From IMG/VR virus record IMGVR_UViG_3300032223_001928, positions 1 through 48,451 of that record: a stretch of 48,451 nt of DNA; one strand, 5' to 3'. This DNA is from a virus. Shown piece after piece: positions 34,858-45,819 of this stretch (position 1 is the stretch's first letter; each line of letters begins with the position of its first letter). The notes under the pieces are model-generated. The model was not told the DNA's origin and did no database searches. It saw only the letters and a list, made by a program, of their open reading frames with translations. A program made the position numbers and the translations under genes.

Positions 34858-35595
34858 TTACTGTCCAAGACCAGTAATTTCTTTGTAAGCTTTAATGGTT
34901 TCTGGATATAGATCTTCTAGTATTTTAAGCATAGCTTTAGCTACAACTTGTATTTCCCATTGAGCACCTTCATGCAGCCGTAGTCCAATAAATTTTAAAA
35001 TATTGGATAAACAACTTGAGGCATAATATTCTGTATATAGATTCTGTGGAAGTACGCCGCGAGCTTGTTCACGACATACGCCTTTTTCCATTAGATTGTT
35101 ATAAAGATTTACAGAATTTATATGATGCATCATAACCATCTCAGAAGCCTTCACACCTAGAACGTCTGTCCCTTCTGGAACCCATACTATTGGGTCAATT
35201 TGCTCGTCACCATTACTTGCTTGTCGGTTATTAGAATGCTGAGTTCTAAATGTTTTAGGGGAATAAAATTCAAGACTTTCTGCTGTATAACGACGGCTGA
35301 TTTCATTATAACTCCAAGTACGATGACGATGATGCTGTGATCTGATAAACAGTGGAACTACACATTTAAAAGTTACGTTACAGTGCTCTAATGTACTTGT
35401 GTGTCTATGTTTTATTAGATAACGAATTAATTTTTTATCTTTATCAGATAAAAGATCTCCGTTTTCGTCTTTTCCAAAACTAACTCTTGCTGCTCGCACT
35501 ATTGTAGCATCTGAGCCCATTGATTGTACAAGCTGCACTCTTCCGATGCCATCACCATATAAATCTATACTAATATTTTTATCTTCGTGATTCAC
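34858..35595 (-). CDS. thyX: flavin-dependent thymidylate synthase ThyX
   Basis: 245 aa, GTG start behind GGAAGGAA. The ThyX signature RHRTWSYNEISRRY occupies residues 90-103, with flavin-binding EHCNVTFK and RSQHHR before it and REQARGVLPQ after. Converts dUMP to dTMP using FADH2 and methylene-folate. Works downstream of the ribonucleotide reductase and dUTPase in this window. A 26-codon ORF just upstream resembles its N-terminus. Confidence 0.95.
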   Translation of the reverse strand: MNHEDKNISIDLYGDGIGRVQLVQSMGSDATIVRAARVSFGKDENGDLLSDKDKKLIRYLIKHRHTSTLEHCNVTFKCVVPLFIRSQHHRHRTWSYNEISRRYTAESLEFYSPKTFRTQHSNNRQASNGDEQIDPIVWVPEGTDVLGVKASEMVMMHHINSVNLYNNLMEKGVCREQARGVLPQNLYTEYYASSCLSNILKFIGLRLHEGAQWEIQVVAKAMLKILEDLYPETIKAYKEITGLGQ

Positions 35596-36435: not shown

Positions 36436-37449
36436 CTAGCGCACCGGACAGCTTCCGCCTTCACATTCCATCGAATCAGCTAAATTGCCTTCACCAACAT
36501 CTTCTTCACGAATTGGCTTAATCTTAGCTGATAGCTTCTCGTATTGCTCCTTGGTGATTGTTTCCTTTGGAGCTTGCTTAAAGCCGTGTTCGCTGTGACA
36601 CAGGAATGAAATCGTTTTTAGATATTTAAGATTTTGTCCTAGCCAAGCTTTTAGACCTTCTAGATCCTCTCGCTTGTAATAAACAGTGACGCTAACTGAC
36701 TGATCTGCCCAGTGCTTTTGGGCCATTTTAACAACATCTAATTGTTTCCAAGTAGTCCAATCTTCATCTGCGACTGGAGCATCTTCTGGCGCAGCAACAT
36801 AAAAATCTACAACAAGCGTGTTGTGATCTAAGCTACCGTCAAATCTTACTACAGGCTCCATATAATGTCCAGCTTCTTTTAGAAGTGGAATTAGTGCATC
36901 ATTAGCGGAGAAGCGTACACGTTGAATAATATAACGTGAATAGCCTGGATGGACTCCTTCATAACAATCAAATACTTTAGAAATTGTACCTGATGGTTTA
37001 ATTACGGTTGTACGAATACTCTCTGGAATTTTTAGTTCTGCTGAATATTTCTTATTCTCGTCCTGGATTGCAGCATAGGCACGATCAAGAACATCAGGTG
37101 CAAACAGCTGGCTTTGAAGACATCCCGTAATACCAGTTCCAATGCGACGATTACGCTTAACAACAGCATCACATTTTGGTTGATGATACTTTTCCATTGT
37201 TACACGCTTACCCCAGCGATGCATTAGACGTGAAGCTTCAATGAATTCTTCTTCATTATTAAGGTTTGGTAGTGCAATTTCTTGAAGGTTGCATGGCTCA
37301 CCATCTTCAAGTGTTGCTTCTGCACAGTTATGTACGCAAATTCCATTAGCAAAAAAATTATGTGTATCATCTACTGTTAAATCATATACGTCTGCTGTTT
37401 CTGTTAAAAATTCAATACTATCTATTTCTTCAAATTCTACTGTGTGCAT
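36436..37449 (-). CDS. ribonucleotide reductase C-terminal half with C-terminal split intein (IntC)
   Basis: 337 aa; ATG 37449 follows AGGAGATATGAG. Residues 1-41 are an intein C-part: VYDLTVDDTHNFFANGI, then CVHN. Splicing then joins at Cys42. The extein (296 aa) begins CAEATLEDGEPCNLQEI and ends CEGGSCPVR, as in adenosylcobalamin-dependent (class II, RTPR-type) reductases. KPSGTISKVF is also conserved. The first extein Cys aligns with the active-site thiyl-radical Cys of the NPCGE motif. The N-half is at 38299-39558. A terminator follows. Confidence 0.93.
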   Translation of the reverse strand: MHTVEFEEIDSIEFLTETADVYDLTVDDTHNFFANGICVHNCAEATLEDGEPCNLQEIALPNLNNEEEFIEASRLMHRWGKRVTMEKYHQPKCDAVVKRNRRIGTGITGCLQSQLFAPDVLDRAYAAIQDENKKYSAELKIPESIRTTVIKPSGTISKVFDCYEGVHPGYSRYIIQRVRFSANDALIPLLKEAGHYMEPVVRFDGSLDHNTLVVDFYVAAPEDAPVADEDWTTWKQLDVVKMAQKHWADQSVSVTVYYKREDLEGLKAWLGQNLKYLKTISFLCHSEHGFKQAPKETITKEQYEKLSAKIKPIREEDVGEGNLADSMECEGGSCPVR

Positions 37450-37450
37450 C

Positions 37451-38248
37451 TCATATCTCCTGATAATTTTTTCTAGTTTTTTTCCACTTCTTGGCAATTG
37501 CTGATTTTGTTTTCAGTTCTGTAAATTTAAGAATCTTTTGAAGATCACAAATTAATTCTATCTCAAGATCTTTTTCATAAATTTCCTTGAATGCATAATA
37601 TTTCTTCATGCGATCCTTGGAAGTATAGTAGAAACTTGATTTTATTTCAACTATCTTCTTTAGAATTCCTTTCTCGTAAATAAAGAAATCTGGAAGATAT
37701 TTTAGACCGTCGAGAACTTCATACTGTCTTACTTCTACGTCCCATTCAAAATTATTATTATCTAGCCATTCAGCGTAAACATACTCCCAAGAACTTCTAA
37801 GAAAGACATATTTCTGTTTTGATCTATTAAAATAATATCCGCCAATGAATCTTTTATTATTTTTTAATAGTTCTGGTCTTTTTATCGGCCAATCAGTAAA
37901 ATTGTTGTCTATCTTAGCATTTTCACTTCTTACTTTTTTTAGATGATCTGTTATTACGTGCGTTCCAACTCTTAGTTGAATGTCTAGATCTTTTAAAACC
38001 TTCCTACAGACGGTATATGTAAAATTTGGAAGGTTAATTTTCTTAACGATTAACTTAAATCCAATTCCATCCACATACATTTTTTCTAAAATAGATTTTA
38101 ATGCTTGTTTGGCTTCTGTATCATTAACCTTTTTATACAGTTTTTGTATAGATCCGTTTTTATTTTTTCTTTCTGCAAGAATTTCCGAAAAGTATATTTT
38201 GTTTATTAACTCTTTTGCTGTATCTAAATCATATGAATCCGTGTCCAT
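37451..38248 (-). CDS. free-standing homing endonuclease (Vsr/PD-(D/E)xK-like) in the split-intein gap
   Basis: 265 aa, one base from the IntC gene. Residues ~145-215 show a restriction-endonuclease fold: SSWEYVYAEWLDNNNFEW, then KYLPDFFIYEKG, then IVEIKSSF (E, PD, ExK). The N-terminal half is a helical, Lys-rich probable DNA-binding region. Endonucleases of this type between intein halves have been described for fractured phage genes. It is AT-rich with many Lys/Asn. Its ATG lies within a 19-bp inverted repeat, and AGGAG in the loop. Confidence 0.85.
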   Translation of the reverse strand: MDTDSYDLDTAKELINKIYFSEILAERKNKNGSIQKLYKKVNDTEAKQALKSILEKMYVDGIGFKLIVKKINLPNFTYTVCRKVLKDLDIQLRVGTHVITDHLKKVRSENAKIDNNFTDWPIKRPELLKNNKRFIGGYYFNRSKQKYVFLRSSWEYVYAEWLDNNNFEWDVEVRQYEVLDGLKYLPDFFIYEKGILKKIVEIKSSFYYTSKDRMKKYYAFKEIYEKDLEIELICDLQKILKFTELKTKSAIAKKWKKTRKNYQEI

Positions 38249-38290
38249 TAGGTTCTCCTAATATAAGTAGTCTAATGGACACGGATTCAT
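38233..38290 (-). promoter_or_regulatory. 19-bp perfect inverted repeat covering the endonuclease start codon
   Basis: Arms 38233-38251 and 38272-38290 are exact reverse complements, with a 20-nt loop. On the mRNA the endonuclease ATG (38248-38246) is inside the 3' arm and AGGAG is in the loop. Readthrough mRNA from the IntN gene would hide the start codon. A transcript starting inside the loop or 5' arm would not. Inferred role: keep the endonuclease low or timed, as hairpins do for some T4 intron endonucleases. Confidence 0.85.
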
Positions 38291-38298
38291 CATTTTAT

Positions 38299-39558
38299 TT
38301 ATGAAATTTTATATAGCTTATCTTCAAGAGTCAGATTTTGTGCTTCTACCCAGCCTCTTTGAGTTAAGACTCTGTGGTCTGGTGTGAGTTTAATCTCTTT
38401 ACCAGATTTTGTCTTAAGTTTCATAATTTGAGCATCTTCCTTTGTCTTGAACGCAATAGCGTTTTTAATAACTACTTCTTGTTTTTCTTCATCGTAGCTG
38501 TAGACCTCAAAATTAGCATTCATTTCGGCTAATTCTTGAATTGTTTTTTCACCTACTGTGGTCATAACAAGAGAATCGCCTGTTAAGCATGGATTTACGC
38601 CAATTGCTGGGTCATATTTCTCTTCACCCATACGACCATATTTTTGCATATTGGTTCGATTTACGATACCAAATGGTTCACCTTCTTCGTATGTTTTCCA
38701 GAATAATGGATGTAGATCGTCAACATCATCTACAACAACTGAGAAGTTCGCCATAGCACGTTGAGTTGGAATATTACCAAGATCCCAGCGTTTAGCCTTT
38801 AGGTACTCTTTATCCCAAGGATCGCCAAGAATAATAATAGCTGAACGACGAACATTACCGGCAACAACCATTTCAGCAATTGAACATAGGATATCTGCCG
38901 CGTCAAGAGGCTTAACGTGTTTGCCGCCTCTGGCGTTGAGGATTGTGCATAGCTTTTCGACAAATGCGATAAGAGGTTTTGGACCGCTTGAAGAACCTCC
39001 AAAGCCACTAATAGGCTCGCCAGCAGGACGAATGCATACAGTAGAATAGCTAAAAGATTTACCAGTATCAAAATATGACTCCAAAATACGACGGGTTAGT
39101 TCATTCCATCCTTCACGACTATCTGGGACGATAAAGTCTGCGTCTTTGCTATCACGATTTACAATATGTACATCGCGTTTAACTTTTGGTAGTTTGCTGA
39201 CAAAGCGGTGTTCAACTGACATACCAACACCACCGCCTAACATTAGCAGATCCTGAGCAAGTACGAAATTTGACCAGTCATCACCCGCTGTAAACCAGCA
39301 GTTATTAAGAGCAACACCGCCAAGTTTTTTATGGCTTGGAGCACCTGAATACCACCAACCACGACCAGCAGGACCAGCTTTACGTTCAGTTAGATAATAA
39401 CGTAGGCGCTCAATCTCTTGTGGACTAACTTCATGACCAGTTACGTTACCATAAATAACACGCTCGACTGTATCACTCCAATTCTCTAATGCACCATAAT
39501 CTTTACGGGCATAGGTTCTTTTGTATACAACTTTAGCTAGATTAGACCAATTTGACAT
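38299..39558 (-). CDS. ribonucleotide reductase N-terminal half with N-terminal split intein (IntN)
   Basis: 419 aa. The extein is residues 1-323: VVYKRTYARKDYG, ALNNCWF, GGGVGMSV, GNVRRSA and GIVNRTN are class II (NrdJ/RTPR-type) hallmarks, ending IGVNP. From Cys324 on, 96 residues are an intein N-part: CLTGDSLVMTTVGEKTIQEL (block A) and KLTPDHRVLTQRGWVEA (block B, TxxH), ending at a normal stop. Needs protein trans-splicing with the product of 36436-37449 to make an active ~619-aa reductase of dNTP synthesis. Confidence 0.94.
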   Translation of the reverse strand: MSNWSNLAKVVYKRTYARKDYGALENWSDTVERVIYGNVTGHEVSPQEIERLRYYLTERKAGPAGRGWWYSGAPSHKKLGGVALNNCWFTAGDDWSNFVLAQDLLMLGGGVGMSVEHRFVSKLPKVKRDVHIVNRDSKDADFIVPDSREGWNELTRRILESYFDTGKSFSYSTVCIRPAGEPISGFGGSSSGPKPLIAFVEKLCTILNARGGKHVKPLDAADILCSIAEMVVAGNVRRSAIIILGDPWDKEYLKAKRWDLGNIPTQRAMANFSVVVDDVDDLHPLFWKTYEEGEPFGIVNRTNMQKYGRMGEEKYDPAIGVNPCLTGDSLVMTTVGEKTIQELAEMNANFEVYSYDEEKQEVVIKNAIAFKTKEDAQIMKLKTKSGKEIKLTPDHRVLTQRGWVEAQNLTLEDKLYKIS

Positions 39559-39570
39559 AATATATTCCTC

Positions 39571-39819
39571 TTATAGAATTTCTTTTAGTTTACTTACATT
39601 TGCAGCGCCAACAAGTCGTTCAGCTTCTACGCCTTCTTCCAAGACAATAAAAGTTGGAACACCAGCAATATTATATTGCACTGCTCGTTCGTGATTTTCA
39701 TCAATATCTACAACTTCAAATTCAACATCTGGCTTGCTATCTTTTAGTTCATTAAAAACTGGCTTCGCTTGACGGCACGGCCCACACCATGTCGCACTAA
39801 ACATTAATACTTTTTTCAT
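39571..39819 (-). CDS. thioredoxin
   Basis: 82 aa, short thioredoxin/glutaredoxin-type fold. Active site ATWCGPC (C12, C15); cis-Pro loop GVPTFIVLEEG. Likely the electron donor for the ribonucleotide reductase encoded immediately downstream in the same operon. Confidence 0.95.
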   Translation of the reverse strand: MKKVLMFSATWCGPCRQAKPVFNELKDSKPDVEFEVVDIDENHERAVQYNIAGVPTFIVLEEGVEAERLVGAANVSKLKEIL

Positions 39820-45811: not shown

Positions 45812-45819
45812 TAAATAGT
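45812..45819 (-). promoter_or_regulatory. ACTATTTA element (candidate late promoter)
   Basis: AAACTATTTATTTT, right after the T-tract of the UvsX terminator and 36 bp before the membrane gene. No sigma-70 promoter was seen in this gap, so the downstream three-gene group needs some promoter and this is the best candidate. Confidence 0.45.

What the first reader, a model, noticed from the sequence alone, without database searches (positions are those of the whole stretch)
36436..39558. Fractured class II ribonucleotide reductase: split intein halves flanking a free-standing endonuclease
The N-half gene ends in a 96-aa intein N-part, the C-half gene begins with a 41-aa intein C-part (...VHN then Cys). 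Joined exteins restore an RTPR-type reductase across the NP/C bond of the NPCGE-type motif. The junction residue is therefore the catalytic radical cysteine itself, so no activity is possible without trans-splicing. The gene between encodes a PD-(D/E)xK/Vsr-like nuclease. Such fractured genes with split inteins and a related endonuclease family have been described from environmental phage data; this locus is a complete example in genomic context.
Basis: partly seen in the sequence, partly recalled or inferred. Interest (0 to 1): 0.88.

Follow-up and report, generated by a model that had tools for sequence, protein, structure and literature searches.

The report
Split-intein reductase with self-regulated homing nuclease
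A phage ribonucleotide reductase gene is broken in two by a split intein with a DNA-cutting homing gene in between, and the switch region of that homing gene carries copies of half of the nuclease's own presumed target site, which suggests that the nuclease turns itself off.

Summary
On the minus strand, a class II (RTPR-type) reductase is fractured into 323-aa and 296-aa exteins by a 96-aa IntN and a 41-aa IntC, with an 800-bp nuclease gene between them. The junction is NP|CAE, so the +1 Cys is the radical Cys408. All splicing and RNR catalytic residues are present, selection is purifying, and 55 of 61 related viral loci have the empty site. The nuclease is PD-(D/E)xK, not Vsr/EDxHD. Fractured RNR genes with split inteins were described in 2009, so the arrangement itself is known.

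The new part is upstream of the nuclease. A perfect 19-bp inverted repeat covers its start codon, and each arm contains AATCCGTGT, the codons Asn-Pro-Cys of the homing site. In 36 usable non-redundant relatives, AAYCCNTG occurs here in 26 (shuffles 0.56; other gene starts 1/241; 0 of 13 relatives outside split inteins). It varies at codon wobble positions and never carries the downstream GAR half that every target has. Best reading: a half-site operator plus start-masking hairpin controls the homing nuclease, an analogue of T4 I-TevI autorepression in an unrelated nuclease family. Binding and repression are inferred, not shown.

The parts
38590..39558 (-). N-extein of the RTPR-type reductase (323 aa, ends GVNP)
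   Evidence: TIGR02505 8.5e-51 for the half-protein; 1l1l alignment with Cys119
38299..38589 (-). IntN, 96 aa (CLTGD...LYKIS) plus stop; blocks A and B (TPDH) present
   Evidence: Pfam Intein_splicing 1.2e-10, intein_Nterm 7.7e-16
38272..38290 (-). 5' arm of the inverted repeat; contains AATCCGTGT (38279-38287), a copy of the Asn-Pro-Cys codons of the homing site
   Evidence: 19 nt, 100% complementary, 20-nt loop; RNA fold z = -6.9; motif statistics
38252..38271 (-). Loop: promoter-like GACTACTTATA followed by Shine-Dalgarno AGGAG (38255-38259)
   Evidence: Sequence; one mismatch from ACTATTTAT, which lies upstream of other minus-strand genes of this phage
38233..38251 (-). 3' arm of the inverted repeat; covers the nuclease start codon (38246-38248) and holds AATCCGTGT on the + strand (38236-38244)
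37451..38248 (-). Free-standing PD-(D/E)xK homing-type endonuclease, 265 aa, helical N-terminal region
   Evidence: Alignment A3; PHROG endonuclease/resolvase hits 138-250; AlphaFold pLDDT 81.9; restriction-endonuclease-like fold matches
37327..37449 (-). IntC, 41 aa (MHTVEF...GICVHN)
   Evidence: intein_Cterm 2.4e-10; Pfam 1.3e-9
36436..37326 (-). C-extein of the reductase (296 aa; +1 Cys = Cys408; Cys419, Cys731, Cys736)
   Evidence: TIGR02505 2.1e-55; 1l1l alignment
39571..39819 (-). Thioredoxin, possible reductant of the RNR (context)
   Evidence: Pfam Thioredoxin 1.6e-19
34858..35595 (-). ThyX, FAD-dependent thymidylate synthase (context)
   Evidence: TIGR02170 8.9e-50

Best explanation
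This is a mobile 'fractured gene' cassette. The two reductase halves are translated separately and joined by trans-splicing of a split intein at NP|Cys408. The PD-(D/E)xK nuclease cuts intein-free reductase genes of related phages at the AAY-CCN-TGY-GNN-GAR site, and repair copies IntN-nuclease-IntC into them (homing). The nuclease gene is controlled by a roughly 58-bp inverted repeat at its start. On transcripts read through from the reductase, the repeat folds into a hairpin that ties up the start codon. Its arms also carry the Asn-Pro-Cys half of the homing site, so the nuclease can bind there without cutting (the downstream GAR half is absent) and repress itself. Shown here by sequence: the anatomy, the empty sites, the hairpin, the conserved half-site copies and their missing second half. 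Inferred: splicing, cleavage, binding, repression, and that the AT-rich loop is a promoter.
For: Split intein and RTPR halves with all catalytic residues. 55 of 61 related viral loci have an uninterrupted NPCxE site, including 83-92% identical alleles in the same helicase-thioredoxin-RNR-ThyX context. 43 non-redundant loci carry this nuclease family between IntN and IntC at NP|C or NPC|. AAYCCNTG in the IntN-nuclease gap: 26/36 loci, shuffles mean 0.56 (maximum 4 of 300 rounds), other gene starts 1/241; counting TGY->TAY, 33/36 versus 1.18. AATCC is the most enriched of 421 5-mers, p = 1.2e-13. Perfect copies vary at wobble positions: CCN uses all four bases, AAN is T27 C10 A3, TGN is T27 C8 A3 G2. 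0/37 copies have the downstream GAR, while 43/43 targets do; 43/43 occupied left junctions keep the core, so the core alone cannot be cut-competent. 13 relatives outside split inteins: 0/13. Hairpins: mean z -3.0 versus +0.1 at control starts, p = 2e-10. Window-L017 hairpin conserved with a C-G to G-C double change and G-U pairs. L137 has four tandem copies of the site. Precedent: I-TevI operator and hairpin (PMC2988022).
Against: No experiment. The motif was first noticed by eye; the unbiased 5-mer test came later on the same loci. 10 of 36 loci lack AAYCCNTG; seven of those have the TAY form and three neither. The loci are related: 16 clusters at 50% nuclease identity, 14 with the motif. Some NPC| loci overlap IntN with the nuclease and show no motif. 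Hairpins are absent or weak in about a third. The promoter-like element in the loop is not consistently oriented between loci. A Vsr-like relative pair did not reproduce a target copy at its start (L064 hint, L159 none).
Confidence: 0.68

Rival explanations
1. The target-like copies are a relic of how the nuclease gene invaded the intein: an ancestral nuclease cut a chance AATCC-TG site inside the intein gene and its gene was copied in there. They have no present function.
For: [quoted passage not shown] The copies lie exactly at the nuclease/IntN boundary.
Against: The window nuclease is only 32-41% identical to most of its aligned relatives, yet the codon-invariant bases stay fixed while wobble bases and flanks vary. 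Copies occur as inverted pairs over the start codon and as four tandem repeats in L137. A relic should have decayed.
Confidence: 0.14
2. Only the RNA hairpin matters: it masks the start codon or Shine-Dalgarno on read-through transcripts, and the AATCC/GGATT arms are kept for pairing, not for nuclease binding.
For: Strong hairpins. Start codon fully paired in the window. T4 I-TevI, segB and Aeh1 mobE use such hairpins (PMC2988022). G-U pairs in imperfect arms.
Against: Pairing alone does not explain why unrelated hairpins share the same Asn-Pro-Cys codons. The copy is kept in loci with weak or no hairpin (L070, L074, L096, L119) and as direct repeats in L137.
Confidence: 0.12
3. The two halves work without splicing, as a two-piece reductase, and the intein remnants are passengers.
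For: Aeh1 nrdA split by mobE retains function as pieces (PMC3653736, PMC10448857).
Against: All intein catalytic residues are intact and under purifying selection. The break falls between Pro407 and Cys408 of the active site.
Confidence: 0.04
4. The locus is a degenerate or dead element, or an assembly artefact.
For: No second copy of this allele was found; the window is an uncultured viral record.
Against: All three frames are open, selection is purifying, and L017, from an independent contig, has the same structure.
Confidence: 0.02

Closest known systems
Fractured genes with split inteins and free-standing endonucleases (Dassa et al. 2009, doi 10.1093/nar/gkp095; not held in the library, known here through citing papers)
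   Same: Conserved phage enzyme gene broken by a split intein with an endonuclease gene between the halves; 7 nrdA and 2 nrdJ intein-interrupted cases were reported from ocean metagenomes (PMC3653736).
   Different: The nuclease here is PD-(D/E)xK. As I recall, the family described there is the Vsr-like/EDxHD one (not checked). The target-copy inverted repeat is not mentioned in any text I could read; the 2009 paper itself could not be read.
NrdJ-1 split intein (PDB 8ubs/9omb)
   Same: Split class 1 intein in a class II RNR at the catalytic-Cys motif. L091, whose IntN matches NrdJ-1 over 104 of 104 residues, carries the same nuclease family.
   Different: The insertion is one residue later (NPC|SE instead of NP|CAE); the window IntN matches it only weakly (E 5.8e-4).
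I-TevI of phage T4 (autorepressor, hairpin and late promoter; PMC2988022)
   Same: A homing-site-like operator at the endonuclease start that lacks the cleavage determinant, together with an RNA hairpin masking translation.
   Different: I-TevI is GIY-YIG and intron-encoded; here a PD-(D/E)xK enzyme lies in a split intein, the operator is an inverted pair of half-sites inside the hairpin arms, and function is not shown.
I-Ssp6803I (PD-(D/E)xK homing endonuclease)
   Same: PD-(D/E)xK catalytic motif used for homing.
   Different: Intron-encoded, from cyanobacteria (my recollection); no sequence match was found in the PDB search.
mobE in Aeromonas phage Aeh1 nrdA
   Same: Homing endonuclease gene splitting a phage RNR gene, with an RNA hairpin at the endonuclease start (PMC2988022).
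   Different: HNH enzyme, class I RNR, no intein.

Membership tests
RTPR (monomeric class II RNR) | RTPR profile over both halves; NPCxE motif; Cys119, 408, 419, 731, 736 | tested here: met
   TIGR02505 173 + 188 bits on the two halves (each alone is below the 340-bit cut-off for the whole protein); all residues aligned to 1l1l
Split intein, class 1 | Cys1, block B TxxH, block F, penultimate His, terminal Asn, +1 nucleophile, on two polypeptides | tested here: met
Split intein, class 1 | Trans-splicing activity | not testable with these tools
   Needs co-expression of the halves
Fractured genes (Dassa 2009) | Enzyme gene interrupted by a split intein with an endonuclease gene between the halves, in phage/environmental DNA | tested here: met
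EDxHD / Vsr-like homing endonuclease family | Vsr-like catalytic domain (EDxHD) | tested here: not met
   No Vsr Pfam hit for the window nuclease at E <= 1, whereas the second L064 nuclease hits Vsr at 3.9e-4; window enzyme has PD...ExK instead
PD-(D/E)xK homing endonuclease | PD...(D/E)xK motif in a restriction-endonuclease-like fold | tested here: met
   P186, D187, E201, K203 invariant in 14 sequences; fold matches to phage endonucleases, E 4e-7 to 1e-3; PDB matches TnsA/BstEII only weak
PD-(D/E)xK homing endonuclease | Cleaves the intein-free allele at the insertion site | not testable with these tools
   Empty alleles exist; cleavage needs an assay
I-TevI-type autorepression | Operator resembling the homing site at the endonuclease start | tested here: met
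I-TevI-type autorepression | Operator lacks what is needed for cleavage | tested here: inconclusive
   0/37 copies have GAR, 43/43 targets do; that GAR is needed for cleavage is only inferred from the retained left junction
I-TevI-type autorepression | Operator overlaps the endonuclease promoter | tested here: inconclusive
   TATAAAT/ATTTATA enriched 19/36 versus 17/241, but orientation is not constant and no promoter was mapped
I-TevI-type autorepression | Endonuclease binds the operator and represses | not testable with these tools
   Needs a gel-shift and a reporter assay

The most novel reading that the evidence does not exclude
A whole family of PD-(D/E)xK split-intein homing nucleases, including the natural locus of the widely used NrdJ-1 intein (whose copy has the TAY form), regulates itself through noncoding copies of half its target that keep the codon-wobble degeneracy of the protein motif Asn-Pro-Cys. 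The operator would be a readout of what the nuclease recognises, and the same repeat serves as hairpin and operator, convergent with T4 I-TevI.
Probability: 0.5. Interest if true: 0.75.

Novelty: new variant of a known kind. Interest (0 to 1): 0.62.

Why it matters
Fractured genes gave biotechnology its fastest split inteins, but how the enclosed nuclease is kept in check and what it recognises were open in the sources I could read. If the operator reading is right, the recognition core of dozens of uncharacterised homing nucleases can be read directly from noncoding DNA next to their genes. The self-control logic of I-TevI would then have arisen independently in another nuclease fold. It also offers an explanation of how a nuclease can sit in an active-site codon of an essential enzyme without cutting its own carrier.

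Tried and rejected
Vsr/EDxHD assignment of the window nuclease: rejected. DNA-level search for the locus in named phages: no match; protein matches to sequenced phages are below 60%. Genome collection: no relatives of the nuclease. Pattern search for the hairpin loop in viral contigs: none, because the pattern was too strict for L017. Intrinsic-terminator reading of the inverted repeat: not called as a terminator. Conserved T4 late promoter in the loop: TATAAAT/ATTTATA is enriched, but orientation differs between loci, so left open. Generalisation to Vsr-like nucleases: the start region of one (L064) reads HVNHPEIVE, like its target, but the 60% relative L159 does not, and too few relatives were found. 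Correlation of wobble bases between operator and own target: looked at by eye only, none seen. The 2009 fractured-gene paper is not held.

Full report
THE OBSERVATION. The window is itself an uncultured viral record of 48,451 bases. On its minus strand, in the order helicase, thioredoxin, RNR N-half, nuclease, RNR C-half..., ThyX, the reductase is in two genes. The N-half (38299-39558) is 323 aa of RNR ending GVNP plus a 96-aa intein N-part. The C-half starts at ATG 37449 (not at the TTG of the listed ORF) with a 41-aa intein C-part ending VHN, then CAEATL. Intein and RTPR profiles hit both halves. Aligned to the RTPR structure 1l1l, the +1 Cys is Cys408, and Cys119, Cys419, Cys731 and Cys736 are all there; that Cys408 carries the thiyl radical is established knowledge of RTPR. 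Joined by splicing, the enzyme would be complete; splicing itself was not tested.

EMPTY SITES AND RELATIVES. Of 61 viral loci found with the C-half, 55 have an unbroken NPCxE site, many of them 83-92% identical and in the same gene order. L017 has the same cassette (IntN 89%, nuclease 64%, IntC 90%). dN/dS between the two is low for all three parts (IntN about 0.06, nuclease 0.13, IntC 0.03), although dS is saturated. Other, unrelated inteins occupy the same NP|C point in L019, L021 and L047, so the site is a hot spot.

THE NUCLEASE. It has no Pfam family. Its C-terminal half matches phage endonuclease and resolvase PHROGs, with an invariant PD...ExK motif in 14 relatives. The AlphaFold model (pLDDT 81.9, pTM 0.53) resembles phage endonucleases and, weakly, TnsA and BstEII. 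It is therefore PD-(D/E)xK. A genuinely Vsr-like nuclease occurs at a different split intein in L064, upstream of a member of the present family.

A FAMILY OF FRACTURED REDUCTASES. Alignment-based scans gave 43 non-redundant loci with this nuclease between IntN and IntC (28 at NP|C, 15 one residue later at NPC|), in RNRs of several kinds. L091 carries an IntN identical over 104 residues to the laboratory intein NrdJ-1, so this family includes the natural setting of that tool.

THE CONTROL REGION. A perfect 19-bp inverted repeat with a 20-nt loop lies between IntN and the nuclease (38233-38290). As RNA it folds far better than shuffles (z = -6.9) and pairs the start codon. Both arms hold AATCCGTGT, which spells Asn-Pro-Cys, the codons of the insertion site. 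This was noticed by eye and then tested. In the 36 loci with a usable gap, AAYCCNTG is present in 26, against 0.56 expected from shuffles and 1 of 241 other gene starts; with TGY or TAY it is 33 of 36. Without any prior pattern, AATCC is the most enriched 5-mer (p = 1.2e-13). Relatives of the nuclease outside split inteins have none (0 of 13). By nuclease cluster at 50% identity, 14 of 16 clusters have it.

WHY IT LOOKS LIKE A BINDING SITE. The copies are noncoding, or out of frame and often on the opposite strand, yet they vary where codons may vary: all four bases at CCN, nearly always T or C after AA and TG. Empty sites in nature vary in the same way. No copy (0 of 37) has the downstream GAR half that all 43 targets have, and all 43 occupied left junctions still contain the core. 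The core must therefore be insufficient for cutting if the element is stable, and the copies are the uncuttable half. L137 has four tandem copies. Hairpins are stronger than at other starts (mean z -3.0 versus +0.1). The window/L017 pair shows a C-G to G-C double change and G-U pairs, with one mismatch.

MECHANISM AND PRECEDENT. T4 I-TevI binds an operator resembling its homing site that lacks a cleavage sequence, and its start is masked by a hairpin on early transcripts (PMC2988022). I propose the same logic here with different parts. Binding, repression and the promoter are inferred. The loop element GACTACTTATA resembles ACTATTTAT, found just upstream of five other minus-strand genes of this phage, but across loci the AT-rich element changes orientation, so I do not claim a promoter.

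NOVELTY. Fractured RNR genes with split inteins are known (2009), so the arrangement is not new. What I could not find described is the PD-(D/E)xK family with target-derived inverted repeats; the 2009 paper could not be read, so this is a limited claim.

Noticed in passing
L091:3099-3413: IntN identical over 104 residues to the laboratory split intein NrdJ-1; the viral contig shows its natural locus with the PD-(D/E)xK nuclease and the NPC|SE junction.
   Followed up: partly
L017:1375-2362: The L017 reductase has a second, continuous intein directly before the residue corresponding to Cys419 (GEP|CNLQ), so two redox/radical cysteines are both +1 residues of inteins.
   Followed up: partly
L060:2300-6606 (and L066): One RNR gene fractured by three split inteins; between the first IntN and IntC there is what looks by eye like a C-terminal remnant of a TnpB/OrfB-type transposase.
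   Followed up: no
L074:3462-7086: RNR with two split inteins; the nuclease start directly abuts the IntN stop with no gap, yet the Asn-Pro-Cys copy is kept.
   Followed up: partly
L064:3220-4179: Vsr-like (EDxHD) nuclease at another split intein of the same RNR; its start region reads HVNHPEIVE in another frame, like its own target, but the relative L159 lacks this.
   Followed up: partly
L137:1380-1643: Four tandem copies of CTTYAAYCCNTGTRKTAY-like sites upstream of the nuclease gene.
   Followed up: partly
L019:4071-5021; L021:936-2375; L047:4089-5063: Other, unrelated continuous inteins inserted at the same NP|C point of related reductases.
   Followed up: partly
window minus strand, near 45818, 44697, 26315, 18982, 16656: Motif ACTATTTA(T) lies shortly upstream of gene starts (CTATTTA: 9 on minus strand, 1 on plus), a likely promoter element of this phage.
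   Followed up: partly
window:18984-20558: Phage-encoded GroEL-type chaperonin (PHROG 5725, 8.8e-143), preceded by the ACTATTTAT motif.
   Followed up: no
window:7256-8446: HNH endonuclease (PHROG 1314), possibly another selfish nuclease of this phage.
   Followed up: no
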